A stretch of 64,000 nucleotides of DNA from Beroe ovata (taxonomy: Eukaryota; Ctenophora; Nuda; Beroida; Beroidae), in contig CAMPET010000127.1 of assembly GCA_946803715.1 (NCBI GenBank), forward strand, positions 35,081 through 99,080. The letters are read 5' to 3'. The position numbers and the translations under genes are program-made. Below the pieces are notes generated by a model that was not told the DNA's origin, did no database searches, and saw only the letters and a list, made by a program, of their open reading frames with translations. Positions 37,319-63,009 of the stretch are shown one piece after another. How positions within the stretch are numbered: the first letter of the stretch is position 1; each line of letters begins with the position of its first letter.

Positions 37319-38344
37319 ATGGCAGGGGACTATCCAGCCTTCTCAGCACTAACCAGAGACTACCCGTCCGAGTGGCTACCCTTTGCCATCATCTCGGGCA
37401 TCATCACGTTAGTTATGTTGGTTCTGGACGTGTACGTTATCATCCAACACAAGAAGTTCTCCACCAAGTTTCCCATACAGTTCTTGTGCACCCTGGGAAT
37501 TCTGCAGGTTTTCCCATTCTATTCCATCATGTCCTTCGTCTCCCTCCTCATCCCTCGAGCGGCCGATGTTCTCGTGTTTTTCACCGAGGTGTGCGAAGCA
37601 TTCTCCTTCATCTTCTTCCTGAAGCTGGTCCTCGTGTTTATGGGTGGTAAAAAGGCATCCAAAGTGATTCTCAAAGGAGAGAAAATGCATCTTAACATTC
37701 CCCCCATTTGTTGCTTCATCTGTCTGCCTCAGGTAAAATTCACTAGGAAGTTCTTCACGTTCTGTGAGGCTCTCATCGCGCTCTACGCTCTATTCTGTGT
37801 CTTTGTCGGATTTATCGAGCTCATGCTCACGCTGGATGGTGATGACACCTACCCTGCAACCGCAGTGAATGGGATCTTCGCCTCCGTGTACCACACCATC
37901 CTTATCCTACTCCTACTCTTTGCTATATACGGTCTGTCCGGGATATACCATAGTGCTGAGGACAAGCTAAAGCACCGGGGAATCGTGAAGAAGTTCATTG
38001 TCTACAAAGCGTTTACTCTTATCTCAAAATTGGAGGATATCATCCTCGGAAGTCTGGTGCATCACGGAACAATCAACGATGAAAACTTCGGCTACAACAA
38101 AACCTTCACTGCAGCACTACGGATGCGAAACATCTACTGCTTCATTGTTGTTCTGCAGGCGTCTATCTCTTTCCCCCTGGCAGTCTTCTTCTACTCGACT
38201 GCCGACTATACTGCTGAAGATGATGCATCACCGGGCAAATCCTTGCAAAATTCCTCTGCGGTTACCAACGACGCTGTGGTCACGAATGAGGCTGTGATAA
38301 CCGACGAGGTTGTCAATAAACTGGACGTTGAGGACACCTGTTAG
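37319..38344 (+). CDS. OST-alpha/TMEM184-family seven-span membrane protein, 341 aa
   Basis: A single open frame from ATGGCAGGGG to TAG. Seven hydrophobic segments run from about residue 18 (WLPFAIISGIITLVMLVLDV) to about 300. The text FPFYSIMSFVSLLIPRA, FFTEVCEAFSFIFFLKLVL, a Cys-rich ICCFICLP loop, TRKFFTFCEALIALYALF and YKAFTLISKLEDIIL follows the solute_trans_a family (OST-alpha/SLC51A and TMEM184). Members move steroids and bile-acid-like solutes or have unknown roles. The C-terminal tail of about 40 residues is acidic, with NDAVVTNEAVITDE repeats. No intron is visible in the coding part; an AG just before the ATG may end a 5' UTR intron. It is a paralogue of the gene at 41463. Confidence 0.85.
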   Translation: MAGDYPAFSALTRDYPSEWLPFAIISGIITLVMLVLDVYVIIQHKKFSTKFPIQFLCTLGILQVFPFYSIMSFVSLLIPRAADVLVFFTEVCEAFSFIFFLKLVLVFMGGKKASKVILKGEKMHLNIPPICCFICLPQVKFTRKFFTFCEALIALYALFCVFVGFIELMLTLDGDDTYPATAVNGIFASVYHTILILLLLFAIYGLSGIYHSAEDKLKHRGIVKKFIVYKAFTLISKLEDIILGSLVHHGTINDENFGYNKTFTAALRMRNIYCFIVVLQASISFPLAVFFYSTADYTAEDDASPGKSLQNSSAVTNDAVVTNEAVITDEVVNKLDVEDTC

Positions 38345-41462: not shown

Positions 41463-42395
41463 ATGGACTTGTACTTCCTCCTATCGTTACTGATGAAAGC
41501 TCACGTTACCACCTCCTGTTTCATTGTGACTGGTGCTATTGCATGGAACATAGTGGAGTACCATCACAGATACCATGTTTCAACTTTGTGCGCGATGACT
41601 GCACTGCAAACATTCCCTCTCCTGTCCATGATGCAAATACTGGGACTTATCACGCCACCGGCAAGCGAGGTGTCCATGTATTTCACCGAGGGGTATGAGT
41701 CTGTGGCGTTCCTTGTCTTCCTGAAACTTGTCATGAGTCATATCAGTGGGAGCAGTGTTGTCAGGTTGTCACTGAACGTTCAAGGAATGACCTTCCGAGT
41801 ACCCGCCCTGTTGTATCAGATATTCCTTCCAGCAGTGAAAATCGATAGGAAATTCCTGTTCCTGTGCGAAGTTCTGTTAGGACTGTATGCTGTGTTCTGG
41901 ACGGCAGTGGCAGCTATTGAAGTGTTGGTCACATTTGGTGGCAATGATAGCTATCCCGCAGGAAGTGGCTTCTCAGGGTACTTTGCCGAGCCGTACCACA
42001 TTCTACTCGTCATGTTACTGGTGTTCACTGTGTACAACCTGTCGAGTGTCTACCAAGGAGAGGAGCACGGAGGATTGCGGGAAATCATCTGGAAACTGCT
42101 CCTTTATAAAATCTTTACACTCGTCGTGAAACTGGAGAATATGCTGTATCTAGCGTACACTGACGGTTTCGCATCCGAGCTCTTCTCGGCGAACAGGAAA
42201 TACAGTCTGGACCTCCGTGTCAGAACAATATACGGGGTTATAGTCATCCTACAATTCGTGGTGACCGTTGCACTGATGAAAGTGTTCTATCGGTTGAGAG
42301 ATATCGGCAGAGATAGAAAGGAAGTGGCGGAGCCGTCACTTTTGTCTGGGTGCGGATTCAGCGCCAATGAAGATCATGACTTGAAGAATGTTTGA
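41463..42395 (+). CDS. OST-alpha/TMEM184-family membrane protein, second copy, 310 aa
   Basis: A single open frame from ATG 41463 to TGA 42395. It aligns by eye with the product of 37319-38344: LQTFPLLSMMQILGLITPP, MYFTEGYESVAFLVFLKLVM, LYQIFLPAVKIDRKFLFLCE, LYAVFWTAVAAIEVLVTFGGNDSYPA and YKIFTLVVKLENMLYL all have counterparts. Again there are seven hydrophobic segments. The head is shorter and the tail differs (CGFSANEDHDLKNV), so the two copies have diverged strongly. The likely role is the same broad one: membrane carriage of lipid-like solutes. The start could lie a little upstream, but no other ATG in frame was found. Confidence 0.8.
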   Translation: MDLYFLLSLLMKAHVTTSCFIVTGAIAWNIVEYHHRYHVSTLCAMTALQTFPLLSMMQILGLITPPASEVSMYFTEGYESVAFLVFLKLVMSHISGSSVVRLSLNVQGMTFRVPALLYQIFLPAVKIDRKFLFLCEVLLGLYAVFWTAVAAIEVLVTFGGNDSYPAGSGFSGYFAEPYHILLVMLLVFTVYNLSSVYQGEEHGGLREIIWKLLLYKIFTLVVKLENMLYLAYTDGFASELFSANRKYSLDLRVRTIYGVIVILQFVVTVALMKVFYRLRDIGRDRKEVAEPSLLSGCGFSANEDHDLKNV

Positions 42396-46265: not shown

Positions 46266-49200
46266 ATGAGTGGGACTCTCAAGTCAATACTTGAGAGTAT
46301 CCATGAAATCCTAATTGTTGGAACCAGTGATGCTCTCACCCCAGTCTTAGATCTCAAGAGCTGTGTTGACAATCTGAGTGATCATGAGCTAGGTTATATT
46401 AGTTAAACCAGATACAGTATCCACTATTCTTGCAGATTTTTTGAAATATCAGTAATTGTTAAAAGTAAGATATATGTTATGACTAATGAACTATTCTCTG
46501 TAGTTGCTGGGACATCTTTCATATTTGACACTGAAAAAGGAATCTTGTCATTCTTAGACAAGACTTGCCACATCAAGGGGAAGGTGGGAATGGCAGAAAA
46601 ATGCAACTGTTCTTCTTATCACATGGTGGCTCATCTAATTTAGTGGGCTGTGATAGTTGTTGCTTTCAGGAGTGGCAAAAAATCTGTGCAGAACTGATAA
46701 AACTGATCCATGGGTTGGTTGAAAAGAGGAATCTTCAGGAGGATCACGTGTTATCTGTTATTGTGAGTACCTAGGTGTAATAGTGTAATATTAAGTGGGT
46801 TTCTTGTTTATTAATCCTTCCAGATGTGCAGGTTATTCTTGAATGATTATTTCTGAAGCATTTATCACTCAATAAAAGAGAATTACCCCCAGGTTCAGGG
46901 TAAAATCCTGTTCACAAAGATTGAAACAAAAGCAAACATTGTTCTTGTTGTTGATTTACTGAGAAGGGTTAGGAGAAATAACGCAAAACATTACATGTAT
47001 TCGACCTCTTTTCATGCTTGCAAACAATAGCTTTGATGGCAATGGGGAAATTTTGATGAATATCATTCAGTTGATATCTTGTGTTTCAGTCAGTATTGAA
47101 GCTTCAGGAAATGGGATCTGGGTGTGAAGATATCGTTGATATCTGTGATATGATGTATAGATCAATTTCCAATAAGCTGAGGTCCTCTTTAACAGGTTGA
47201 CTGTTTAGATGTCTAGACTGTTGGATAATGATTCTATCTTCGAAAAATCCCAAAATAGGTATCCGTCATGCTAACATTTGAATATCCCTTTCAGTCACAG
47301 ATGCAATATGCAATTTTATCCAAGCTGTAATGGGTGTTGCCACTCATTTGTTTGATGAAGAGAGAGCAGTGAAATGGTTCAATTTCTTCATGCATAATCT
47401 AAAAACTGAAGTAAGTTTCTCAATGTCCTCTTATCAAATACTCTTCATTTCTTAGTTGTGATCATGTGTTGGATTCATTTCTATTCAGATGGTGATAAAA
47501 GCTCATAAGAAGAAGGTCCCAGAGTTGCAGATGATAGCTGCAAGTTTCACTGGGATTGAGGGTGTTTTGTCTAACTTTCCCACTTTAGTCTCTGAAAGCA
47601 TCTTAGAAGAGGTGTTCAAGTTGCTGGTGAAATCTTGTAACCCCAACGTAAGTGAATTGATTACGGTTGAGCCTTTCCAAATCATTAAATCAATACCCAA
47701 ATGAGTCCCTTATAGTGTGAATAACCCACTGACTCACTTGTGTCTCTAGGTGGAAGCCCAAAGACATGCTATGCAGCTAGCAGTGCTGGGTATCCTATCG
47801 AAACACACATCCAAATTCTCAAACCACATCTTCAAAGAAAACGTCACTCTCCTGAACTTCCTGGTTGCAATGCTCAAGACCAAGAATGCCGGATTGAGGA
47901 ATTCTGTTTGCAAGGGTCTCTCTGCTCTTGTTTTGCAGGTACAACACAGTCGATAACACAGTGGATGGAATGTAATTCAGATTAAAACTGTATAGCTAAT
48001 TGATTTCTTGTTTACTACATGTTCCTAACTCTGTACATTATATCAGATGAGCAGAGAAATGACGCGCAACGAGGAGGAAGGAGCAGGATTGTTTCAGCAC
48101 TACCTAACGGTTCTGGTACCCCTTCTACAAACCAGTCACAGGCGGCAAATATCTGGTGTGATGCAGTGTCTGGGACACCTTGCCCTTCCTTGTAAATGCC
48201 TCCTCGGAGAGGAAAAGCTCATTCAGCTCTTCAAGAAGATCCTCTCAGCAGGTACAACCTCTGGGTTCTGATAATGATTATAGTATGAGAAAACACCCGA
48301 TTCTCCTCCTTCGATGCTGGTCAATGGTCATATTGTATCAAACGTTTGAAGAGGTTTTCGCGACGTCCATTTAAACCCTATGTGTTATGTATCAGGCGAG
48401 AAGGTATATGGTGGAAGTACGACTGATAGTGATGCTGATTACAGCACACTGCTACCCACTGTGATTACAGCACTGGCAGACACTGTCTCGTGCATTGACA
48501 GCATATCGTCAGAGTTGAGAGAACAGCTTGTTGCTCCAGTCATCTCCCTCATTGAGGTACTACCTAGTGGTTAAGACATCCCGCGAGGGAAGTTGCACTG
48601 CGAGTGTTGGTTCAAAAAACAAATAGACCCAGGAGTTAGGACACCTGACCGAATATCAACTAGCTGATTTGTTGCTCATTGTGCAACCCTGGGATTGCTC
48701 GATTACCTGCTTTAATCCTATTGAACACTGTCAAATTGACAGGTGTATCCAGAGCTCCACCCGAAGACGCAACAGACATGTTACAACTCAATCCAGTGTC
48801 TCCTGGGAGCAGTTCACACAGATAAAGACACGTTCCAGTGGTTGCTGAATGAAATATCGTACCAGGTGGGGTAACGTGTGAAATATGTCTGCTAGGACGT
48901 GTCTACTAGCACGTTACCAAGGTAACGGGGTGAACAATGAAATGGTTCCACGAAACAATGAAGTTGAGTTAACACTTGACAACTGTCCAGGGTGTGTTAC
49001 GGTGTTCTATCAACACGGACTCTGATGAGTATGCGAGTCTATGGAATGATCTCCTCAATAACTATTCTGACAAGATTCATGATCTATCTGTCCGGAGAGA
49101 AATTCATGTCTCAATCCTAGATACCTTGATCAATAGGTAAGTAACGGTAATTCGCTGCAGTAGGATATGAACTAGAATACGGCGCGTTAGTTCTGAGTCA

Positions 49201-52200
49201 AAGGCTATTATGGGAATTACACTCCCCACTCATTTGCTGATACGCCTCATACTATATTGTTCAGTTTTCTGGTGATGTTCGAGAAGTTAGATATTAGTCC
49301 TGATGTTGAAGAGGACCAAGAGGACAGCAATATGGAGACAGATGGTCAGGAACCCACACCAAAGAAGAAGGATGTTGAGATTTACAAGAACCTGGCTACA
49401 TTGCTAACTGATATTATTGGAAATATTGACGATGATAGGTCAATTTCTCTTCTATGATGATCATTTCTACCATATTCCTTCCTTATTCATTCCTTATTCC
49501 AAGTTATGATTATCACCTCACTTTTACCCCTACCTAATTTCAGATTGGAGAAGTGGGTGCTATCCCTGGTGAATTGCACTATCCGTGTGAGCAGTTTACA
49601 ACCGGAGTTGGAATGTTCCTACTGGTTGCTCAACGCACTTATCACCTACTGTGACACCAGTGAATACTTCTCCGCTCCTTCACACAGGGTATGAGCTATG
49701 TAGTTAAGAGTGGAGAATCTCATGCTATGTAGTTAAGAGTGGAGAATCTCAAGATCTACCAAATCGTTAATTTCACATAGCTTGGTTAATGGTTATAGGG
49801 TGTGGAAGTATGGCCGTACTCTAAGTTTCATGATTCCGTCTTTTCAGGAGTCCACTGGAAGTACGTTGAGAGCGTTTTGTCGAACTCTGATTGACAGACT
49901 AGACAGTCTGACAGAGAGTGCTCGCATTGCTGCGATATCGATGTTGCTGTCCTTCCCTGTCCCACTGCTACACGACTCTGTGGACATGTTCATAATGGCC
50001 CTCAAAGAGGCACTCACTCGAGGCATCGGGTACCTTTATCTTCCCAATTCTTTAGTTCACGTGTTGTACCCTCGCTAGTGAACCTATCCGTGGTCTTGTT
50101 TGTTATACTATGAATCTACTAATATAACATCTCTACTCTTTTCCAGGTGTCTTGAGGTCGGGATCCGTGGAGTGGAGTGTATGTGGAGAGTTGTGAGAAG
50201 TGGGCACAGGTCTCTCCTAGAGGGCCACTGCCATGACATCCTGCCTCTCCTCAATCCATACCTCATGTCATCGGCCGATACTTCAGACAGGTATGAATAC
50301 CATCACAATGTCATCATGTGATGGTGACCACCGGTCACGTGTAAATTACCTCTGTGACCAGTGACCACTGACCAGTGACCATCCTCAGATCAGAGGTGTC
50401 TCTCTACACTCTACAGAGTAGCATTGTTCTGTTGTGTGGGACTCTCGGTGGGTCTGCTAACATCCACCTCATTACGCCTGAAATACCTGAGATATCTTGG
50501 ACTACCGATCAAATCCTTAAAATACCGGTGTCCTTCGGCTCATCGCAGATTGAGATGTGCCTTGGTGAGTTTAATCGAAAAATAATACGAAGGGCCACTG
50601 ATTTTAAATTATTTTCACAAAATTTGTATCATCAATATCATTAATATTGATCGAAAATAATCCCCAAGAAATAAGTAATTAAGTTTCATCTGATTGATAT
50701 GGATTTAGTCTATGAACTTCATAACAATCGTTATGAACCCACTATCAATATCTATATTCCCCCTCAACTGTCCCTCTCGCGAGTGGGGCAACCCACAAAT
50801 TGAGTAAGTGGGGGTATCACCTCATTCTTCATCACCACACTCTGCTCCCCCACAATCGCATCACCACCCACATCAGCACCGTACATCAGAACAGTGCCAC
50901 CGGCCACTGTCGCTCTCTGTCTCACGAATAGCGGCGCTTTCTTCAGAATTCTGTCCTCGAATGTATGAGCCTGGAAGTGACAGCTGACCGTCGTGTCATC
51001 CTCAAAGTGGAGTAAATCAGGATCGGTTATTTGGGAAAACTTGGTTCCGAAGAAGAACACGTTTCGTCCGATAGAGACGCCAAATAATCTGAGTATAGAA
51101 TTGAGGAGCTGAGTTCCGTTGAAAAGATCGAGGACGGGTTTAGCCCACGCACCCCACACCACGTAGAGGAAGTCCCACCTGCTACACCAGCATGACCAAA
51201 GTGGGTGTATCCCCTCGCCCATCCTACCGATCAGAACCCACTTCAGCATGAGCACCAGAAGTGGGAAGCAGAAGAGGGATGCCACAGTGGCGGCGGGGAC
51301 TGTGAGATATCGGAATACAGTGGGGTCCTGAACTCTGCTCTGCTCGTCAAGATACCTGTACCACGTTACGAGTACACAGACAGTGGGAATTGTTATAGTG
51401 AATCTGAGGAGCTCCCAGAAGAGTCTGCTGATGAACCGGATAAGTGTGGGATTGTGGGTGACTGATCGTCCTGCTGTGACCACCTCTCGTCGTGGGAGCT
51501 CGAATAGAGGGTTACCAAACCAGGATGACCCCGGGTAGATTTTCCTGTCGTCAGCAACTGAGCATACTCCTATCAGGATATCAGGGGGAAGGTGACATCC
51601 TGGCGGGATTATAGCACCATTCCCGAGAAACGTTCCTTTACTCAACTTTATCCTTTCCATGACCACATAGTCACCTTCGAATCTGGGACCACCAAGGTAT
51701 ATGACGTCAGCAAAGAATGTCTCATCTTCAATTGTCACAAGTTCCGGAGTGACCTCAAATATTGAGCTTATCTCGCAGTTTTTACCAATTTTCATGCCCG
51801 CCCATCTGAGCCACGTTGGCCAGAATATGGTTCCGCTGAGGATCAAGCCAGCAGATGAGACTATCCTATCTTTGAGACAGACGGTCATGAACTCCAGTGT
51901 CCTCCTATGATGCACTCCTTCACGCACAGTACCCAACACCCGCATTATCACAATCTGAACAATGAGTGATATGAGCACCCCTCCTGCTAAAACACCACAC
52001 TTCACTGCTGCAAGAGTGGTGGCGTCATCAGTGAAGTTGTAGAACCCTTTGATATTCAGATAAGTGTCAACCTGATAGGATATGACGATTGGGTTGGTAA
52101 GGAATCTTATCAGAGAATCAACAATGAGGAATTGTGCTGCATATTGGAAGGGGGACATCACTTTGCAATGGGGCTTCTTCACATCACTTGGTGGAAGAGG

Positions 52201-55200
52201 TGATGACATGCCCGGTACTCCGGACACCTGGCTCTTAGCCGGGATAACGCTCCCTGATGCAACGAGTGATGAGTAAGTGATGACTGAGTTACTACCAATA
52301 TCGGTGTTGCAGCTCACGTAGGATTTTGTTTGTAAAGTTACATTATCCCTGATAGTAACCCCTCCAAATGTAAGATGGTGTCGCTCCGCTTTGACCGTTG
52401 CCACGGTTACATCTCGACCGATAACAACATTATCGCCGATATCAAGCAAGTCCCACCCACCTTGCTCAGATACTTGCGACGCGTGGATGTAGACATTTGC
52501 CCCGACTTTAGCTCCCAGTAACCGAAGCACAATATTGTGAAAATGAGTGCCGGATATCATTTTCCAGGGAACGGTTGAGGTGATTGTCATTACAATCCAA
52601 TGTCGGAGATAGAACCAGCCCCACACCGGATGGGATCCAGCAGTATACCGGCCGATTAAAGTCCACTTGGCACACACTGCTGCTAACACAGACACCGGTA
52701 ACCACAAAACTACAGTGAGAGTGGTGTTGACAATGGACGAAGTCGCTGAGTATGCTAGCAAACTGGAGCAGTACAGAACACCTGCTATCCACAGTAACTG
52801 TAGCAATGTTATTATCATGGAACACTCCTGTAGTGGTAGCTTGTCCTGAGCAACGTTCTTACAGGGTTTTTTCATGGAACAGATCTTTGCTAGATTCCCC
52901 ACAGTTCTCTGATTGTAGATATCTCTAACTGCGAGAGTTGCAGTCATTGGATCACCGCGAAGATCTGAAATTACCATGGCAGCAGTTAATGAATCACCCC
53001 CAAGTGCGAAGAAGTCCTCTGCAGATTCTGGGTTCTTGCCCAGGTTGAGGTTGGACCGGAATGCCCGGGCTATGATAGCCTCTACACCCGATGAGGGCGA
53101 TGTATCAGCCACATCATCAGTATTGCAGTTTGTCTGACTCATGTACATGTGTTTGAGGGAAGTTGTGTCCAGTTTACCACTCGTCGTAGTGGGAAATAAG
53201 TGAACTGACACTATGTCAGATGGAACCATGTAGTGGGGTAGTTGGTTGCTCATACACCTCTTCACAGCTGTGACATCCAGTATACTGTCCATGAAGCGGA
53301 GGATGACAAATGCAACGAGTTTCTGTACGCTGCCATGCTTGACGACTGTGCACACAGCCTCTTTTATCTCGGGTACATACTTCTTCAGGAATTCCTCAAT
53401 AGACGATAGCTCGATACGGTACCCTCTCAGCTTTACCTGGGAGTCAATTCTCCCAAAATACACCAGTTCTCCATTTTCATTCAGTGACACCAAGTCCCCG
53501 GTCCTGTATATCCTACCGAATGTGGGGTGATCCAGGAATTTGGCAGCGGTCAGGTCTGGTCGATTGAGATACCCTCGGGAGACATTGAGACCGCTGATAC
53601 AGAGCTCCCCACTCTTACCAGCTTCAACTGGATGTAGATTCTCATCCAGAATATGGGCAGTGTTGTTCACCAAAACCTTACCGATGGTGACCTGTCTATG
53701 TGGACTGAGCTCCCCTACTGTAACCACGACAGAACACTCGGTTGGGCCATATCCATTGACAAGTCTTCGTCCATGAGACCAGGTTCTGACTAGGTCAGGT
53801 GTCATTTCTTCACCACCCACGTATAGAATCTTGAGAGAGGTGAGGACGAGAGATGCTTCGGGGCCCATGCTTCTTAGTAGTGTCGGAGGTGGAGTTAGCA
53901 TGTTGATGTGCTCTCGTTGTAACCATGGTGACAAGTCTGGACCTAGACGGACTGTCTCATCATCTAGAACCACCAAGGTACCACCTGTTGCAAATGCCAG
54001 AAATATTTCCTCCACGGAAGAGTCATATGCTCCTGACGACATCTGGGCTATTCTCCAGCCTACACTTATCTCAGGGAACACTAGCCTATGGTTGAGGAGC
54101 AAGTTACAGATATTCCTGTGTTCTATCAACACACCCTTTGGTTTTCCCGTTGTCCCTGACGTGTAAATGACATAAGCTAACTGGTTCTCCGATACTTCAG
54201 GAAACTCTGTCTCTGCTGATAGTTTCCTGTTGGAAGCGCACGCCTTCACATCCTCATACACAACAACAGGGATGTCTTTATCCTTAATACAAGATTGGAG
54301 CCTCGTCTTACAGTGACCATCTGTGATGATGAGTGATGGCTTTGCGTCACCCAGGATGAAGCTGATCCTTTCGTCCGGAAAACCGGTATCGAGGCAGGTA
54401 TACGCCCCTCCTGCCTTCAAGACAGCGAGCTGGGCTATGTATATCTTCTCTGAGGACCTCTTCATGAAGATGGCCCCCACGGACTCAGCTCCAAAGAATG
54501 GACAGAGGAACCTGGTCAGTGCTGTGACATCGTGACGTAGCTGGTCGTACGTGATCTTACTGCGTACAGTGGACTTCTCTTCGAACCACTCAATTGCAGT
54601 TACATGTGGGAATTGCTTTGCTGTCTCCTCAAAGTATCCATGTAAAACTGAGAGTCGTGACAATGCCATGAACCTACAGGAAGCCAGGAATGTACTGTCA
54701 CATTTGTAATTTGAGGCAACAAAATTAGACAAAATAGGAAAGAGAAACCAGTAACCACCACTTAAAATTTCTGTGAGGCTCCTTCATAAATATGGCGTCA
54801 AAATGAGTTTATTTGTGTTATACACTGTGCAAATAAACAATTTTTACTTTTACAACATTTCTAACTGTTCAGACATGCTTATTAACTGTGATGAAACCGG
54901 AAGTAGACTTCAGCAAACCCAGACAAATTCATTCTAAGGTAAATCTCCAATCAGTGCATTTATTTCTACAGCAACCCAGCACAGTAGCACCTACTTAAAA
55001 GTGTCAGGAAATGAATCGTTCTCGACAGATGGTAATGGTTGTCCGCTTTCTATAGCTCTCACATTGTGAATGTTTCATTATACGTATTACGGAACCTAAA
55101 TTTTCTGCCTTTCCTCTTGCAGATTTTCAACTATCCCTTGTACCCCTTTACTGAATTAACCACTGAAACTGGTTAATCAGCTCGAAATGCGACTTTTAGG

Positions 55201-58200
55201 GAGCTCAGTAGCAAAATGTCTAAATGATTTTTGAGAAGTTGCAGTTCAACTCATTTTGCTGGTGATGCTGTGCTATGATCTTTATTTTCAAGTTGTATTT
55301 CCCTCGAAGTTCCACTCATTTCCTGGTGTTGATTGTGAAAGTAACTTGTGTTAAGTGTGTAGGTAAATTTTTACTATGCGACATCAGACTATTTAGTTGT
55401 ACAGGGTTGTTGTTTGGGTGGTACAAACCGACAAAAACGCAGCACATACTCGCACAGTATAACACTGCAAGACACGGGAAAATGATAGCCCTGTTCTATA
55501 GAACTATTATATAGAACTGTTAATATTCCTCGGACACTCAGATATATAAAGATACTGAATTGACAAGGAATTGCATTGTTGCGCCAGGCACCTGAACGAT
55601 CACGGCAGTAATTTATATCCAATCATATCCGTAACATGCTCTGGTAACGTTACAAACAAAGGTGTTTACAGACAGCGTAACATCATCAAGAATTATTGGG
55701 AATCAAGCAGCTGTAGCCACTTCAATCCTCGTTCGAGTCGGTGGTTTCAATAATAGAAACCTATAACCGTTCTGTCATGTATATAAGGTAGAGAGGGTGT
55801 GATATTCAGCACATTCATGTGGGACGTGGGTCATGTGATGACCACCCTCACGTGACTGTCAGACAGGCGATAATTCGAATATAATAACAGCTATCGGAGA
55901 CAGCCATTTCGTGGACATAACTACGCAAAGCAACATGACATCTTGATATTGAGATGGTCGACGCAAGTTATTGACTTATTAAGATGCACGTCTAATGTCA
56001 TGGTATTATGGTAGGAGCTGATATGTCATTTCGCATATTGGTACATTCACTATAATATTATTCTTACCGGTTCGGTCGTTACATATAACCCATTGATATA
56101 ACCCACTGTGAATACTGCTTGATCTCGATCAGCAGTTTTTCAGTAGCTTTCTGTGGATATCACAGTTTAGCAAACCTAGCTTATAAGATGGATTATCACA
56201 AATCCACCCCCGCACAAATATGAAACAACTAACACAAACTCCTCAAGTAAAACTTCATCTATCATCATTCATCAATTAGCCAAATTATCAGTGTTTTAGT
56301 TTAGTTGGTGTGACTTGTAACACTGTTACATTCGGATGTCACTGTCCTCATATTATTTCCATGCGCTATTGCCACGCCCGAATAGCGATAATGTGTCGTA
56401 TTTGTCATTAACCGGTTGCGATAGATTGAGCTGCCGATTCTCAATGTGATTGTTGCTAGGGCAATTTTCTAGAACAGCCCATGTAACTTTTGCAAAATAT
56501 ACATGGTTTACTAATGTTATAAATATGGAAACTCTACAGAACACAAATCATATCCACATGTTATTTCTGGAGCCGGTGTGGATTCACGCATCGGTCACAT
56601 TCCTGGTGGCATGCAGCCGCCACACCCTGCTGTCGGAGCGGGTCTGGGGCAACACACACCTCACCTGTATCTTGGCAATGGTGTGCGGCGTGTTCAGCCC
56701 CGTCGAGAACTGGGTTCTCTTCGGTCACACAGCGTGGGAAACAACGTTCATCACAGACGCCCTGCATCCTTGCCTCGCTCTAGCTCCCATTCTGCATGTT
56801 GCTACTGCTCTAGCTAGTTACCGAGTCGGCGTGTACCAGTTGTCACACCACGGCGTGGACGCCGTGATCAGGTCGTCACTCCTCGCATTCTCCTGCTTCT
56901 TCATCGCTCAGGGCATCTTCTTCGACACGCTCCTGTATTCGGGAAGCTATGACGAGTATCACGGAGGGGTGAGGAAGAGTTTCCTCTCGTTCTTCATAAC
57001 ACCGCAGTTCCGAGATGCTTACTGCGTGTTTTACATCACATTCGGTCCTGTCTTCTACTTCCTGACCGTGTCGTGGAGTGGCGGTGTGACGCCACGCGAG
57101 AAGTGCTCCTTCATCAACACGCTCATCGTGGAGGCAGCTCGCCAGGGTGTTGCTGGTATCATCTTCTACATTGTCCTCTGCTGTTCTGGCGCTTTGCCAG
57201 AGCGTTACGATCTGTGGAGAGCGGTGTACGCTACTGTGTTGCACTGTGTCTTCCATTCCCTTCTCATTCTCCCTCTTCATCTGTCAACTACGAAACAGAA
57301 TCAAGAATAACACACTTGAATGAAAATTATGAAATAATGAGCTGAGTTAGAGGAAACATTCGAGCACAAAACAGTGAAAAAAAGTATAACATGAGGATCC
57401 TGCAATGAGTCAAAATTCAATTCTCAACTTGGAACTGGAAGCACAGAGAATAACAATTTTCAGAAGCGATCTCATTATTTTTAATTGTGAGCGTGCAATG
57501 TGCATATTGAGGAGGGGTCAAGGGTCACTATTTTCAGTCATGTGACAGCAATTGACCAATGAGAACATAGAAAACTAACTTCGTAACTTCGTAAATGCCA
57601 TGTGGTTCTTCAACAGAAATGGTTAAAGAGTCATTTACCATTTCGTAGTCAGACAACGGCCATCATGGTTTTCGAAAGTTTCTAAAATCAAGTTTATCGT
57701 ATCATTCATTTTGCTCTCCAAGTTGATCAGTCATTCCTTGTTACGTTCAATAATTCCAAAAAATAAGTGCTTTCACTGCGTATACCAGATGAGGTATTTT
57801 GCCTTGCTGCAATGAATTGATACTGAATTCCCCAACATTACGCTAATAACACCGGTTTGTGATGAATGGATATAGAATTTTCTAGCATCACGAATATAAC
57901 CGGTTTGTATTGCAGATGAAATGACGCGCGAGGTGATATCTCTGTGTAAGACCTCTACCAGCGCTCAGGCCAGGGCTAGTGCCTGCGAGCTCCTACATTC
58001 CCTGTTCCTCATTGCTGTAGCTACTGAACAACAATCGCCCAAGAAAATCAAGGTTCTGACGCTGTGTTGTGATAGTCGTGTTGTGTTATAGTGATGATTC
58101 TTGTCACGTGGTACACTGTGGTACACTGTGTGTCACGTGATATAATACCATGGTAACTGATGTGTCCCCCCATAGTTACTGTACGACCACACTCTTCCTG

Positions 58201-58470
58201 TACTTCTGGAACTGGGTAGTGATAGTAACAAAGTGGTGCGGCAAATATTCAGAGAGTTGACGTTCCAGATTATTCATTGGCAAACCAGCCGACCGCATGA
58301 ATCCTACATCTTACATCACATTCTGGTAAGAAAATGTTGGTGATTTGACAGTGAAATATTGAGTTTATTCAGTATAATAAGCGGTGACTTAGAAAGGAAA
58401 GTGGAAAAAGTCCCACTTTCTACAATACACCACCCTTTGAAATCCTCCTGTGTGTCCACCTTCGGGTGGG

Positions 58471-58509
<39 letters not shown>

Positions 58510-59392
58510 GGCCCCTGCGCAAGGATGACACGCAAATTCGTGAAGCGTTCCAAATTTTTTTCCTGCCCTCCCACATAATCATTTTCTTGCATTGGAGTCG
58601 ACAACAACCTCTCAGAACTCATTAATTACCCAATTATGACCAATTTAAAGGTACGATATTGATCTCATCGGTGTGAGTTCGAAACCACTAGGAGTTTTTT
58701 TTCGAAAATTTTCTTTATTATTGCTCTTTAGTGCTGAAACGAATCTTTCGTTAAGCCAAGCCTGTCGCTTCCATTCTTAGCAATTCTCGTTTTGAGTTTA
58801 ATACTTTTTTCAAAAAAACCTCAAGTCATTGAAGTTCCAAAAGGTGGTATACATAGACGTAACGCGCGAAATGTGATTTGCAGCGACCATGGCGCAAAAT
58901 GACGCGCGTAGTGTACTTTTTAACGCGCGCGCATTCCTTTACCACATGTTTCAATCGTTTAGGTATCCGAATAACCTCATCACTTGACTGTCTCCCTTCA
59001 GAATGGGATTCAGCAATCCTCGAATATGGAGCTCAGGAAGTTCTGTGGCGAGTGCATAGAGGAATTCTGCAAGTGGAGCATTAAACACAGTTCCGACATA
59101 ATGTCGCCAGCTGTAAGGTTTGTATCGCCGTAATCATTTCATTATTAACCTTGCCTATGATATCGACAATATTTGGTGACTTATCCCTGCAAACCAGGAG
59201 CGTTTTCAAGAGCTTGCTGTACTGTGCAGACCATCCCTCAATATCAACACAGCATGCTGCGGCTACTGCGTTCAACTCTTTTTACCGTACATTCAGGTTT
59301 GAAAATGTCGATATTAGTGTGGCTTCTTGAACCCCTTGAAAACAAATAGTTGAAGGCGCTGTGTTATTTCGCACAATTTTTCGGTATGTATA

Positions 59393-59455
<63 letters not shown>

Positions 59456-61667
59456 CTGTTAATGTTGTACCCGTTGAACCACACTCAACAGAGAGGAAGA
59501 AGTTCTGGTGTCTGACTACACCCTCTCGCTCCTCGGATCAATGCTACACAGCTACTCTCACAAACAGAGCTCGGCTGTTGAGTCAGCTATCAGACATCTG
59601 ACTCGTATTGTAGCTGCAAAGTATGACGTGTTCGTGTCTTCTTCCAGCACACGGATAAGACCAAGGTACTGCTATTTTCTTGTGAGACCTTGCCTAGACA
59701 ATTTGGAGGATTCATGGTCTTGCTACAACTTAATGTTGTAGTCCGACCCCAGATTCGGTCTCATCAAAACCTCCATGTTTAGGTTCGGGACGGAAGGAAC
59801 ACTGTTTGAGGTGACCAGACATGTGTTCTCACTTACATATTCTCCTCATGAACATGTCCGAGACATAGCCAGGGAAATGTACCTGAAATTCTACCATTTG
59901 AACCCCGGTACCTAAGTCGTTATAATTCTCATTAGTTCGAACGAGTCATCGTTACATTGTGATATGGTTGAAACCATCTCCACTCATTGATTGAGTTGAG
60001 ATGGTACTTAATACCCATCTCTGATAGCAGTATCCCACACCTATTCAGTGAATAGGTGTGGATAGTATTCACTGTCCCTTTTCCAATACAGGCTGTTCAA
60101 ACCACCACGAACTACTGGACAAGTTCGGCAAGGAAGCATTTCCAGCGTTGCCTGATCAGGTCGCTGATGACGAACAAACCACCAATTTGCTGTGTGGGGT
60201 GTTTTCATGGGTCGGCTGGGTTGTAGATAACAACATTGTGTCCAGTAGTGGAAAACTTATTGGTAAGTGCTGATTTATACAGTGCTGACGCCAATAATTC
60301 AAGTCACTTCCAACAACCCCAACAAACACGTCATGTGTCAGCGATATATCACGCCTACCACGATTATAATTTCTTGGAACAAATTCCACAGATAAACTGG
60401 GTCTCGCCACCGTCGTCCCGCAAATAACGTCAACAAGTGACCCAAACTTGCTGATGCTCGTGTGCCAATTCCCCGAGTTACGGTGTCATGTGACTGTGGA
60501 AACCACGACATCTCTCCTCCTCCGACCAAGTGGTGTCACGCGATACAGCGAGCTCAGCACAAGAATAATCTCCAATATCGATAAAACACGTGAAGCGGGG
60601 CTCGTGGATTCCCTCCGCAATGCGATTACAGAATTCAGGTTCAACTTCTCTCTCACTCTCTCGTGTTATGAAAATATTAACTCTCCCTCTCACACACAGT
60701 ACGCACTGTTTCAGTGAGAGCGGTGAACTGCTGGAATTACCGACACATGTGCTACGCGCGATACATGAGATGTACTCCAGGGATATAATTCAGGGGGAAT
60801 TGTCGATGGAGAAGTTGGGCGTGGTCCCACTGGCCCAGTGTTTACTGCACAAAACAAGATTCGTCTGTCTCGTTAACTTGTACTATACCACCATTCGCAA
60901 TCCCAGGTATGGTATATATTCTCGCCATGGTTGTGAAACTTTTTGTGGTTTCGCAGTAGAGACTGAAGCAAAACTCCATACCTAACTGAAGCAAAACTCC
61001 TGGGAATGCAATGATTCAATCTGATGCCGTTCTCGACCGAAATGCATAAAGACATCTTTACCGAACGTTTTGTGCGTTTGAGAGCTTATGTTTGATGTCG
61101 CGATTCGATATTTAATGTCAGCAAAAGATCGAAATGTTGCGATCAATGTTCGCATTTATTTGATCGGACATATAACTGACAGCTAAGACTAGTCGAGTCT
61201 TAGAGAATTGAATGACTTGTCCTACGTCATAGCAAATTCAATGTTAATAATGAAGTCAAGATTATGATTGTTGATTCACCAGACCTGATATATAATGCGA
61301 ATCTCGAGGACCAATGCTGAGACATCACATCTTTCAGGCGTATTTTAGAGGAATACGAAGGATTGAAGTTACAGAATCCTTGCCTGGCATCATGTATAAA
61401 GGAAAGTGTCCGGCTGGAGCTGAGTGATGGACAGGTGATTCTACTCACTTGACAAATGGGAACTCGAAAAAAATTATATTTCCTCAAATTTGATGTCTCT
61501 TCCTCCGCCCTCGCGATGGAAACTGGCCTGGTTCATTGATGAATAAGGATACCAATTCTGTATCTCTTTCCACAGGTTTTGCATGACATCATCGTGTTGG
61601 ATGACGCTCTAAAGAAGCTCAATCTGACTCTGGATCTTCTTCTCTTTACACGCAGCTATCCGCGATT
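46266..61667 (+). CDS. PRKDC: DNA-dependent protein kinase catalytic subunit (DNA-PKcs), N-terminal third
   Basis: 27 exons: 46266-46392, 46504-46583, 46670-46762, 47090-47195, 47295-47410, 47489-47647, 47750-47938, 48047-48251, 48396-48556, 48743-48865, 48991-49136, 49265-49438, 49544-49688, 49848-50029, 50147-50290, 50389-50564, 57916-58052, 58176-58325, 59002-59117, 59198-59296, 59492-59665, 59783-59907, 60092-60262, 60392-60638, 60700-60906, 61338-61434 and 61576-61667. Phase is kept at every junction, about 1313 residues. Recognised by helical-repeat text: CGTLGG, then across the 7.35-kb intron ASACELLHSL, VLLELGSDSNKVVRQIFREL, ELRKFCGECIEEFCKWSIK, REEEVLVSDY. These follow the order of the DNA-PKcs N-HEAT and M-HEAT regions. 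It is the nuclear kinase of non-homologous end joining, recruited by Ku. FAT and kinase domains lie beyond the window. The last donor (gtgagt at 61668) also reads as a stop, but the length shows that the gene continues. Confidence 0.9.
50764..54669 (-). CDS. Pls/PosA-like single-module peptide synthetase, membrane-bound, 1301 aa
   Basis: An intronless frame; ATG at 54669 (MALSRLSVLH) was chosen because the 21 codons before it include an acceptor-like CTGTAG. Adenylation domain, residues 10-510: YTSGTTGKPKG (169), GYGPTE (306), YRTGDL (388), KLRGYRIE (413), SGKLD (497, Lys499). Carrier domain 530-600: LGGDSL with phosphopantetheine Ser560. Then three blocks follow, each two membrane spans (about 618-675, 841-912, 1075-1147) plus a soluble left-handed-helix, acyltransferase-like domain (about 690-820, 930-1060, 1160-1290). 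This is the order and almost the length of Streptomyces epsilon-poly-L-lysine synthetase. By analogy it would activate an amino acid and join it to itself, an amine or a lipid at a membrane. The product is unknown. It lies antisense in a PRKDC intron. Confidence 0.9.
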   Translation of the reverse strand: MALSRLSVLHGYFEETAKQFPHVTAIEWFEEKSTVRSKITYDQLRHDVTALTRFLCPFFGAESVGAIFMKRSSEKIYIAQLAVLKAGGAYTCLDTGFPDERISFILGDAKPSLIITDGHCKTRLQSCIKDKDIPVVVYEDVKACASNRKLSAETEFPEVSENQLAYVIYTSGTTGKPKGVLIEHRNICNLLLNHRLVFPEISVGWRIAQMSSGAYDSSVEEIFLAFATGGTLVVLDDETVRLGPDLSPWLQREHINMLTPPPTLLRSMGPEASLVLTSLKILYVGGEEMTPDLVRTWSHGRRLVNGYGPTECSVVVTVGELSPHRQVTIGKVLVNNTAHILDENLHPVEAGKSGELCISGLNVSRGYLNRPDLTAAKFLDHPTFGRIYRTGDLVSLNENGELVYFGRIDSQVKLRGYRIELSSIEEFLKKYVPEIKEAVCTVVKHGSVQKLVAFVILRFMDSILDVTAVKRCMSNQLPHYMVPSDIVSVHLFPTTTSGKLDTTSLKHMYMSQTNCNTDDVADTSPSSGVEAIIARAFRSNLNLGKNPESAEDFFALGGDSLTAAMVISDLRGDPMTATLAVRDIYNQRTVGNLAKICSMKKPCKNVAQDKLPLQECSMIITLLQLLWIAGVLYCSSLLAYSATSSIVNTTLTVVLWLPVSVLAAVCAKWTLIGRYTAGSHPVWGWFYLRHWIVMTITSTVPWKMISGTHFHNIVLRLLGAKVGANVYIHASQVSEQGGWDLLDIGDNVVIGRDVTVATVKAERHHLTFGGVTIRDNVTLQTKSYVSCNTDIGSNSVITYSSLVASGSVIPAKSQVSGVPGMSSPLPPSDVKKPHCKVMSPFQYAAQFLIVDSLIRFLTNPIVISYQVDTYLNIKGFYNFTDDATTLAAVKCGVLAGGVLISLIVQIVIMRVLGTVREGVHHRRTLEFMTVCLKDRIVSSAGLILSGTIFWPTWLRWAGMKIGKNCEISSIFEVTPELVTIEDETFFADVIYLGGPRFEGDYVVMERIKLSKGTFLGNGAIIPPGCHLPPDILIGVCSVADDRKIYPGSSWFGNPLFELPRREVVTAGRSVTHNPTLIRFISRLFWELLRFTITIPTVCVLVTWYRYLDEQSRVQDPTVFRYLTVPAATVASLFCFPLLVLMLKWVLIGRMGEGIHPLWSCWCSRWDFLYVVWGAWAKPVLDLFNGTQLLNSILRLFGVSIGRNVFFFGTKFSQITDPDLLHFEDDTTVSCHFQAHTFEDRILKKAPLFVRQRATVAGGTVLMYGADVGGDAIVGEQSVVMKNEVIPPLTQFVGCPTRERDS
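54733..56524. other. Spacer between the two nested genes
   Basis: Part of PRKDC intron 16. It should hold the promoters of both the minus-strand synthetase and the plus-strand membrane protein, which are divergent. No core element or repeat was recognised. Confidence 0.5.
56525..57310 (+). CDS. Seven-span membrane protein of unknown family, 261 aa
   Basis: A single open frame from ATG 56525 (METLQNTNHI) to TAA; a second ATG at 56558 (MLFLEPVW) is possible. There are about seven hydrophobic segments, among them HASVTFLVACS, THLTCILAMVCGVF, LAFSCFFIAQGIFFDTLL, YCVFYITFGPVFYFLTVSW, GVAGIIFYIVLCCSGALP and VLHCVFHSLLILPLHL. Codon use is GC-rich and clearly coding. I do not recognise the family; no receptor or transporter motif was evident. 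It lies in PRKDC intron 16 on the host strand and is intronless. Confidence 0.7.
   Translation: METLQNTNHIHMLFLEPVWIHASVTFLVACSRHTLLSERVWGNTHLTCILAMVCGVFSPVENWVLFGHTAWETTFITDALHPCLALAPILHVATALASYRVGVYQLSHHGVDAVIRSSLLAFSCFFIAQGIFFDTLLYSGSYDEYHGGVRKSFLSFFITPQFRDAYCVFYITFGPVFYFLTVSWSGGVTPREKCSFINTLIVEAARQGVAGIIFYIVLCCSGALPERYDLWRAVYATVLHCVFHSLLILPLHLSTTKQNQE
57311..57915. other. Remainder of PRKDC intron 16
   Basis: No feature recognised apart from the acceptor tgtattgcag at 57906-57915. Confidence 0.5.
58452..58558 (+). ncRNA. RNU6: U6 spliceosomal snRNA
   Basis: The block CATATACTAAAATTGGAACG, then GATACAGAGAAGATTAGCAT (ACAGAGA box), CCCCTGCGCAAGGATGACAC (U6 catalytic stem region) and CGTGAAGCGTTCC, ending in a run of T (58554-58561), is the conserved U6 sequence. 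The 5' hairpin reads GTCCACC-TTCG-GGTGGGC; it differs in sequence from the usual one but pairs perfectly. The gene lies in PRKDC intron 18 on the same strand. U6 is normally made by RNA polymerase III; no clear TATA box was seen 25-30 bases upstream. The exact ends are set by comparison. Confidence 0.93.
59393..59453. repeat. CA microsatellite in PRKDC intron 20
   Basis: (CA)n of about 30 units between exons 20 and 21. Confidence 0.95.
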
Positions 61668-61884: not shown

Positions 61885-63009
61885 CTAAATGATTGTTTCG
61901 ATAAGACATTCATCACTAGTTTTTTCTGCCCGTAACTTTGACTTCCCCACGTTGGTTATTTTGACCACTTTGGGTTTGGAGTGTTTGCATATCCTGCATT
62001 TCCCCGGGCCGAGTAGAGATTTGAGTGAGACCACGCCCCGCACATACTTGTTGAGGGTTGAACCCCTCAGACAAAGCACGAGAGGAGTGAGGAATGAGTT
62101 GAGGAAGAGGAGAGGATAACTCGTCATGCACTGCACGAGTCCCAGTACCTCCGTGAAGGGTTGTTTCCGTGTACTAGCTATCACGACAAAGTACGCACTG
62201 TTACAGATGAGCGATGTGATTGTCAGCATGACGATTGTCTGTGTCATGCGTCGGTTAGTCTGCGTAACCCGTGATTTTCTCTTCAACACGAGGCAGTAGC
62301 TCTGGTAGACTGTGCTGAGCAAACACACGAGGATGGGTAGTCCGTACGGCAGGACAAGGTTCACCAGCATCACCACTATCTCCACTGTTTGGAAGGAGCA
62401 CGCACTGGCAGGTAGTCCAGTCTTGCAGAAGATGCTGAACACTATGGCGCCACCGGGGCGCGGAAACACAACCATGTCCTTAACAACGGCAATGGTGTGA
62501 TTGGCATTGCCGAGTCGGCGCATGTTAGGCGGGTAGAGGAAGAAGTGGGAGAGGAACAGTTCCGATAGGACGAGCGCCAGCCAGAACACGGGAACGATGA
62601 AAATGACGAGGAGCGCTGCTCGTCGGTTGAGACGATAGAACTTGAACCGGATATTGACACTCCGTACAATGGTTAGCATGACACTGTACAGCACGGAGGT
62701 GTGGAGCGACACCTGGCCCAGGGTGTAGAACACGGGACCGGTGTATCCCAGACTTTCCGGTGATATGGAGAAGAGGACAAGGCTGAAACCCTGGAGGAGG
62801 GCGGCCACACCCACCACGAAATCACTGCACGAGAGGGAGAAGTAGACGAGGTGCATGACGTTCGTGCGGGACCTGCTCCTGAAGAACCACGCTGTGAAGG
62901 TGTTGAGGGTGATAGCACCGACACCTATGAGTATGTTGAGAACTGGTAACATCACCAGAAACACCATGTCTGACATGATCATGTCGTATATTTCGATTAG
63001 TCTTGACAT
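61885..63009 (-). CDS. Rhodopsin-like seven-transmembrane receptor, 374 aa
   Basis: One intronless frame with seven spans at about residues 18-42, 54-78, 92-120, 132-156, 207-235, 258-280 and 288-314. TM2 keeps the SCSD aspartate (Asp63). The TM3 end reads TIVRSVNIRF in place of DRY, keeping the Arg (116). TM7 reads NSFLTPLVLCLR in place of NPxxY. Loop 2 has two Cys (195 and 204) and an N-glycosylation site NHT at 169. The tail is basic. The pattern fits the class A GPCRs of early-branching animals, which often lack exact DRY and NPxxY motifs. The ligand is unknown. It lies after the last visible PRKDC donor and so within its intron 27, antisense. Confidence 0.8.
   Translation of the reverse strand: MSRLIEIYDMIMSDMVFLVMLPVLNILIGVGAITLNTFTAWFFRSRSRTNVMHLVYFSLSCSDFVVGVAALLQGFSLVLFSISPESLGYTGPVFYTLGQVSLHTSVLYSVMLTIVRSVNIRFKFYRLNRRAALLVIFIVPVFWLALVLSELFLSHFFLYPPNMRRLGNANHTIAVVKDMVVFPRPGGAIVFSIFCKTGLPASACSFQTVEIVVMLVNLVLPYGLPILVCLLSTVYQSYCLVLKRKSRVTQTNRRMTQTIVMLTITSLICNSAYFVVIASTRKQPFTEVLGLVQCMTSYPLLFLNSFLTPLVLCLRGSTLNKYVRGVVSLKSLLGPGKCRICKHSKPKVVKITNVGKSKLRAEKTSDECLIETII

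What the first reader, a model, noticed from the sequence alone, without database searches (positions are those of the whole stretch)
50764..54669. A complete epsilon-poly-lysine-synthetase-like enzyme encoded in an animal gene
The frame has an intact adenylation domain, a carrier domain with its Ser, and three repeats of 'two membrane spans plus acyltransferase-like domain'. That is the unusual layout known from Streptomyces Pls and its PosA relatives, and the length is nearly the same (1301 against about 1319 residues). Such enzymes are bacterial and fungal; I know of no characterised animal member. The gene lacks introns while its neighbours are rich in them, which fits gene transfer or retrotransposition. 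It could make a poly-amino-acid or an aminoacyl lipid or amine.
Basis: partly seen in the sequence, partly recalled or inferred. Interest (0 to 1): 0.92.

Follow-up and report, generated by a model that had tools for sequence, protein, structure and literature searches.

The report
Bacterial-type amino-acid-polymer synthetase in an animal
An animal chromosome carries, inside an intron of its DNA-repair gene DNA-PKcs, an intact open frame for a bacterial-type membrane enzyme that is predicted to load a positively charged amino acid and would likely link such units into a short chain, so this animal may make a poly-amino-acid of its own.

Summary
The frame (54669-50764, minus strand, 1301 aa) is real and complete: adenylation domain, carrier domain with Ser560, three repeats of two membrane spans plus beta-helix. 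It lies in a 7351-bp intron between consecutive coding exons of DNA-PKcs, on a 203-kb contig of a 77.8-Mb genome with TGF-beta genes and eukaryotic rRNA; its codon usage is the host's. Contamination is very unlikely. The family name needs correcting: it is 27-28% identical to Pls and PosA and scores below the curated Pls/PosA cut-off. With two unnamed relatives (61 and 66%) it forms a clade in a large uncharacterised, mostly bacterial sister subfamily (100/100). It keeps Asp216 and Glu220, which bind cationic amino acids in PosA, but its pocket code resembles that of a Bdellovibrionales domain reported to activate L-arginine. Likely mechanism: a cationic amino acid is activated, tethered to Ser560 and amide-linked in the membrane domain. 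Substrate, product, expression, host species and donor are undetermined. Homologues in Metazoa were already mentioned in print (PMC10522769).

The parts
50764..54669 (-). complete frame of the synthetase, 1301 codons plus stop
53173..54633 (-). adenylation domain, residues 13-499; pocket code D216 S217 E220 T259 Y283 G285 G306 V314 V315 K499
52885..53064 (-). carrier (PP-binding) domain, residues 536-595, motif LGGDSL with Ser560
52159..52821 (-). membrane repeat 1, residues about 617-837: two spans plus beta-helix
   Evidence: limits read off the model
51493..52152 (-). membrane repeat 2, residues about 840-1059: two spans plus beta-helix
   Evidence: limits read off the model
50767..51468 (-). 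membrane repeat 3, residues about 1068-1301, with conserved Q1233, H1235, E1238, D1239, R1240, K1243, K1281
50565..57915 (+). DNA-PKcs intron (7351 bp, gtgagt...gcag) that holds the gene on the opposite strand
   Evidence: limits counted by hand
47327..50564 (+). DNA-PKcs exons before the gene
57916..59633 (+). DNA-PKcs exons after the gene

Best explanation
This is a nuclear animal gene, nested in an intron of DNA-PKcs, for an enzyme of adenylation, carrier and membrane beta-helix domains in an uncharacterised sister subfamily of the Pls/PosA synthetases; it was likely acquired from bacteria long ago, is predicted to activate a positively charged amino acid, and would likely join such units by amide bonds in its membrane domain. 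Shown here: frame, domains, host setting, codon usage, subfamily placement, and the kept Asp216, Glu220 and Ser560. Inferred: the adenylation domain makes the aminoacyl-AMP with Asp216 holding the alpha-amine and Glu220 the side-chain cation, as in the PosA crystal structures (PMC10522769, section read); the host's phosphopantetheinyl transferase arms Ser560; in the three-fold beta-helix domain an amine attacks the thioester and a short cationic isopeptide grows. Untested: the substrate (arginine-like, lysine or another cation), whether the acceptor is the growing chain or another amine, the side of the membrane, and expression.
For: Layout and confident models. Host exons on both sides align to DNA-PKcs, one aligned stretch running across the site. 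203-kb contig, TGF-beta ligand domains, eukaryotic SSU rRNA. RSCU correlation 0.61 with DNA-PKcs exons and 0.49 with three other window genes, against at most 0.12 (median -0.13) for 80 of 80 bacterial homologues. Clade with P0001 and P0004 at 100/100 within the subfamily. Asp at code position 1 in 201 of 201 rows and Glu at position 3 in 198 of 201, both kept. 99 of 102 wider-family conserved positions kept. One phosphopantetheinyl transferase match in the same genome.
Against: Fails the curated Pls/PosA cut-off, so polymer formation cannot be read across from Pls or PosA. The closest tested pocket (Bdellovibrionales) activated L-arginine only modestly and no known diamino substrate well (PMC10522769); a guanidine side chain is a poor nucleophile for chain growth (general knowledge). 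With P0002 left out the clade moves to an unresolved base of the subfamily, and the quick tree warned of long branches meeting there, so the donor, and strictly the direction of transfer, are not fixed. CpG depletion (0.60) matches the DNA-PKcs exons (0.50) but not three other window genes (0.76-0.89). No transcript evidence was available.
Confidence: 0.6

Rival explanations
1. The enzyme does not polymerise: it transfers one activated cationic amino acid from the carrier domain to a lipid, polyamine or other membrane-side acceptor, using the beta-helix acyltransferase-like domain.
For: The C-terminal model's best, weak, fold matches are hexapeptide acetyltransferases. The subfamily lies outside the curated Pls/PosA boundary. 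Arginine, the only substrate reported for the common code of the subfamily (PMC10522769), is a poor monomer for isopeptide chains.
Against: Known enzymes of this layout that were characterised make homopolymers (PMC10522769, sections read); three-fold membrane layout and wider-family conserved residues are kept.
Confidence: 0.3
2. The gene descends vertically from an early eukaryote and was lost in most lineages, instead of coming from bacteria.
For: Long stem of the animal-type clade (0.86 and 1.15) and its unresolved base without P0002; PMC10522769 mentions homologues in Amoebozoa, Alveota and Metazoa.
Against: The hits with names are bacterial; with P0002 the clade is nested among Bdellovibrionota and Myxococcota rows (94/94). 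Named eukaryotic homologues were not available to test it.
Confidence: 0.1
3. Bacterial contamination or misassembly.
For: Named relatives are bacterial and the frame has no introns. The scan for bacterial rRNA scored only 5 of 528 candidates, so bacterial scaffolds elsewhere in the assembly are not ruled out.
Against: Consecutive DNA-PKcs exons on both sides with splice sites; host codon usage; the two rRNA matches are eukaryotic.
Confidence: 0.02
4. A recently inactivated gene without function.
For: No transcript data; P277T, R502T and A820G at positions at least 96% conserved in 48 wider-family rows.
Against: 1301 open codons at 61% identity to P0001 with 99 of 102 conserved positions kept, which implies long purifying selection.
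Confidence: 0.05

Closest known systems
[quoted passage not shown] fungal Epls of Epichloe, PMC7179176, passages read)
   Same: A-T plus six spans and three tandem C-terminal domains; near-equal length (1319 aa in L104); Asp and Glu at code positions 1 and 3
   Different: 27.0% identity; code DAESIGTVVK against DSETYGGVVK; Pls passes TIGR02353 (675.2 bits), this protein does not (363.6)
Delta-poly-L-ornithine synthetase PosA (Acinetobacter baumannii, PMC10522769, abstract and five sections read)
   Same: Same layout and the two cation-binding positions
   Different: 28.3% identity; code DMEHNGTVSK; PosA gene passes TIGR02353 at 725.2 bits
Bdellovibrionales enzyme with code DSECYGGVTK (PMC10522769; related rows P0003, P0013, P0032, L006)
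   Same: Same sister subfamily in the trees; 8 of 10 code positions equal to the common code; P0003 43.7% identical
   Different: Bacterial; Thr for Cys at position 4 and Val for Thr at position 9. I did not have the sequence of the enzyme tested in the paper, only its code.
Animal NRPSs surveyed in PMC10531068 (parts 1 and 2 of 5 read) and Ebony/ACSF4-type single-module enzymes named there
   Same: Adenylation and carrier domains encoded in animal genomes
   Different: In the parts read they have condensation or other domains; the words 'membrane', 'sponge' and 'poly-lysine' do not occur in its main text

Membership tests
Pls/PosA synthetases (NCBIfam TIGR02353) | Adenylation and carrier domains followed by six spans in three tandem repeats | tested here: met
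Pls/PosA synthetases (NCBIfam TIGR02353) | Curated score cut-off of 423.1 bits for the terminal domain | tested here: not met
   window 363.6, P0001 352.7, P0002 373.9, P0003 388.5, P0014 373.9; Pls 675.2 and PosA 725.2 as positive controls
Pls/PosA synthetases (NCBIfam TIGR02353) | Asp and Glu at specificity positions 1 and 3 (cationic amino acid) | tested here: met
   D216 and E220; the position map returns the residues published for PosA
Pls/PosA synthetases (NCBIfam TIGR02353) | Pocket code of a known polymer monomer (Lys, Orn, Dab, Dap) | tested here: not met
   DSETYGGVVK equals none of the Pls, PosA or other Pls/PosA-type codes; no full code table was at hand
Pls/PosA synthetases (NCBIfam TIGR02353) | Makes an amino acid homopolymer | not testable with these tools
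   needs enzyme assay
Uncharacterised DSECYGGVTK sister subfamily | One clade apart from Pls- and PosA-type rows | tested here: met
   100/100 with 39 rows and with 33 rows
Uncharacterised DSECYGGVTK sister subfamily | Code DSECYGGVTK (177 of 201 rows, some of them the same protein under two ids) | tested here: inconclusive
   8 of 10 positions equal; T and V replace C and T
Uncharacterised DSECYGGVTK sister subfamily | SET-domain gene directly upstream (20 of 80 loci, so not a defining trait) | tested here: not met
   no open frame of 100 aa or more of this kind beside the gene; none of the 20 loci belongs to Bdellovibrionota or Myxococcota
Animal nuclear gene | Inside animal coding sequence on a long contig, with host codon usage | tested here: met
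Animal nuclear gene | Transcribed and processed by the host | not testable with these tools
   no transcript collection was available

The most novel reading that the evidence does not exclude
An animal makes its own cationic poly-amino-acid (arginine-like or otherwise new) with a single membrane enzyme taken from bacteria, as a chemical defence or surface polymer, and it represents an undescribed, phylum-spanning subfamily of such synthetases.
Probability: 0.38. Interest if true: 0.85.

Novelty: new variant of a known kind. Interest (0 to 1): 0.58.

Why it matters
Cationic poly-amino-acids such as epsilon-poly-lysine are antimicrobial, and the producers characterised in the papers I read are bacteria and fungi. 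A complete enzyme of this layout in an animal chromosome makes it directly testable whether an animal makes such a compound itself. The work also separates out a sister subfamily found in at least nine bacterial phyla, with one dominant pocket code, no product that I could find in the papers read, and in 20 of 80 bacterial loci a SET-domain gene directly upstream, which is a concrete lead to its chemistry.

Tried and rejected
Contamination or misassembly: rejected. Filing it as Pls or PosA: rejected by score, identity, code and tree. Donor: the quick tree (140 rows) and the careful tree (39 rows) put the clade with P0002 beside Bdellovibrionota and Myxococcota rows, but the quick tree warned that P0002 and this clade are long branches meeting, and leaving out P0002 (with five other rows, to cut long branches and size) moved the clade to an unresolved base; no donor is claimed. 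For run time 12 of the 51 assembled rows were left out. Host species: COX1 gave no match, an Ost-alpha-like neighbour found no homologue at E 0.001, and an Hsp70 search did not complete. A sponge is my guess from genome size, from no call. More animal relatives: a search with the C-terminal half gave 82 proteins, the best 47% over 87% of the query (P0121), none named as animal. Substrate from bacterial neighbours: apart from the SET gene no recurrent immediate neighbour stood out in the clusters shown (25 of those found); an ornithine carbamoyltransferase lies directly upstream in 1 of 80 loci (L006); Pfam on 10 chosen neighbours gave no common theme. Fold search of the C-terminal model gave weak hexapeptide-acetyltransferase matches (best E 2.7e-4, TMq 0.15); the A-T model matched NRPS structures (best E 1.2e-50). 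My first codon-usage script had one window gene out of frame and a swapped GC/GC3 label; its figures are replaced.

Literature: searches (one returned none). PMC10522769: abstract and five sections. PMC10531068: parts 1 and 2 of 5 plus a term search. PMC7179176, PMC10282587, PMC10280926 and PMC4784904: passages only. All others: search listings. That I found no paper describing an animal member of this layout in detail rests on these searches alone.
Full report
Observation. The frame at 54669-50764 on the minus strand is open for 1301 codons. Pfam finds the adenylation core (residues 13-368), the carrier domain (536-595) and a hexapeptide repeat. NCBIfam finds the Pls/PosA terminal domain over 618-1295 at E 2e-108 but at 363.6 bits, below the curated 423.1. 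Simple hydropathy shows six spans in three pairs in the C-terminal part, plus two weaker stretches in the adenylation domain. AlphaFold gives confident models of the A-T part (pLDDT 86.8) and of the C-terminal part (pLDDT 86.7, pTM 0.88), the latter with three repeats of a helix pair followed by a beta-helix, as PMC10522769 describes for a model of PosA (section read).

Setting. Exons on the plus strand on both sides, joined, match DNA-PKcs (PDB E 8.2e-50; Pfam DNA-PKcs_N and DNAPKcs_CC1-2), and the third aligned stretch runs across the place where the gene sits. The intron there is 7351 bp with gt and ag ends (50565-57915, counted by hand on the sequence); the 13 other gaps between the exon pieces that I delimited are 80-676 bp. 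The contig is 203 kb in an assembly of 77.8 Mb and 534 contigs. That assembly has 8 TGF-beta matches, five of them above 60 bits, two SSU rRNA matches that are eukaryotic (only 5 of 528 candidates were scored, so this is no proof that bacterial scaffolds are absent), and one phosphopantetheinyl transferase match. One full-length copy of the enzyme was found; the next best matches are adenylation domains of a different, three-module NRPS. Codon usage correlates with the DNA-PKcs exons at 0.61 and with three other window genes at 0.49, against at most 0.12 (median -0.13) for the 80 bacterial homologues; CpG observed/expected is 0.60, near that of the DNA-PKcs exons (0.50) and below that of three other window genes (0.76-0.89). 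The host is an animal; its species is not established.

Relatives. Of 7988 scored hits the best 120 were listed: P0001 (61% over 99%, 1318 aa, on a 397-kb contig), P0004 (66% over 55%, 750 aa), then proteins at 44% or less, bacterial where named. A scan of prokaryote genomes found 135 relatives and kept 80, from Bdellovibrionota, Myxococcota, Acidobacteriota, Planctomycetota, Verrucomicrobiota, Armatimonadota, Gemmatimonadota, Actinomycetota and Pseudomonadota. They were picked by patterns from this protein, so they sample its own subfamily. In the careful tree of 39 rows, window, P0001 and P0004 form a clade (100/100), sister to P0002 (100/100), in a weaker group with Bdellovibrionota and Myxococcota rows (94/94); the 32 subfamily rows are split from seven Pls/PosA-type rows at 100/100. 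Without P0002 and five other rows the clade (100/100) goes to an unresolved base of the subfamily, which itself stays at 100/100. A bacterial origin is likely, the donor unknown.

Not Pls proper. Identity is 27.0% to an annotated Streptomyces Pls and 28.3% to PosA. Both pass the TIGR02353 cut-off (675.2 and 725.2 bits), while the window, P0001 and the three other subfamily members tested do not. In the plasmid collection the listed records annotated Pls/PosA match at about 27-33%, while four Streptomyces records annotated only as adenylation-domain proteins match at 40%.

Pocket. I mapped the ten specificity positions by motif (recalled from gramicidin synthetase) and checked the map: for PosA it returns DMEHNGTVSK, which agrees with the residues named in PMC10522769. 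The window and P0001 give DSETYGGVVK, P0004 DAETYGGVVK; 177 of 201 rows give DSECYGGVTK, a few proteins being present under two ids. PMC10522769 reports that a Bdellovibrionales adenylation domain with that code showed activity with L-arginine and none of note with the four known diamino substrates (abstract and section). Asp at position 1 is present in 201 of 201 rows and Glu at position 3 in 198 of 201; in PosA these hold the two amines. A cationic substrate is the best prediction; which one is open, and lysine is not excluded.

Catalytic integrity. Of positions at least 97% conserved in 197 rows the window keeps 91 of 96 up to residue 520, 5 of 5 in 521-617 and 79 of 85 in the C-terminal part. 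Over 48 rows that include Pls- and PosA-type enzymes it keeps 99 of 102; the changes are P277T, R502T and A820G. The third membrane repeat keeps Q1233, H1235, E1238, D1239, R1240, K1243 and K1281; that they are catalytic is inference.

A side lead. In 20 of 80 bacterial loci (73 hold at least 600 bp upstream) a SET-domain frame lies directly upstream on the same strand: 11 Planctomycetota, 4 Actinomycetota, 2 Verrucomicrobiota, 1 Armatimonadota, 2 uncultured. Four of the 20 were given to Pfam and all four matched SET; P0079 is a SET-synthetase fusion. SET domains commonly methylate lysine side chains (general knowledge), so a lysine-bearing or methylated product or enzyme is a testable idea for the subfamily. 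Against its bearing on this gene: none of the 20 loci is from Bdellovibrionota or Myxococcota, and no such frame was seen beside the animal gene.

Mechanism and doubt. Activation, carrier loading by the host transferase and amide transfer in the membrane domain follow from the named families. Chain growth is inferred by analogy; single transfer to a lipid or amine is the main rival (0.3). Expression is untested. PMC10522769 already mentions homologues in Metazoa, Alveota (its spelling) and Amoebozoa, so an animal homologue as such is not new; the intact gene, its host intron, its place in a separate subfamily and its code are what this adds.

Noticed in passing
G000 contig C26:143854-154668 (loci L082-L084, L097-L099): The same genome has a second, classical NRPS: a 3605-residue open frame with three adenylation-domain matches on a 501-kb contig; Pfam finds condensation, adenylation and carrier domains in the stretch tested. 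Codon usage correlates with the host DNA-PKcs exons at 0.63.
   Followed up: partly
bacterial loci such as L012:9345-9959, L023:9387-9941, L074:2482-2991; protein P0079: A SET-domain gene directly upstream of the synthetase in 20 of 80 bacterial loci, and one SET-synthetase fusion.
   Followed up: partly
L006:8910-9983: An ornithine carbamoyltransferase frame overlaps the start of a Bdellovibrionales subfamily member by one base; 1 of 80 loci.
   Followed up: no
window 56525-57310, plus strand: A single-exon frame for a hydrophobic protein in the same DNA-PKcs intron; no Pfam match above cut-off.
   Followed up: no
window 58454-58559, plus strand: A full-length U6 snRNA match lies in the gap between two later DNA-PKcs exons (58325 and 59002), so that gene hosts several nested elements.
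   Followed up: no
window 41463-42392 and 37319-38344, plus strand: Single-exon frame weakly like organic solute transporter alpha (20.8 bits, cut-off 24.9); a second frame looks similar by eye (not tested).
   Followed up: no
window 61888-63009, minus strand: Single-exon frame that looks like a seven-span receptor by eye; no Pfam match at E 0.001.
   Followed up: no
protein P0103: A subfamily member named by its source as Tepidisphaera sp. is fused to a heparan-alpha-glucosaminide N-acetyltransferase-like and DUF418 part.
   Followed up: no
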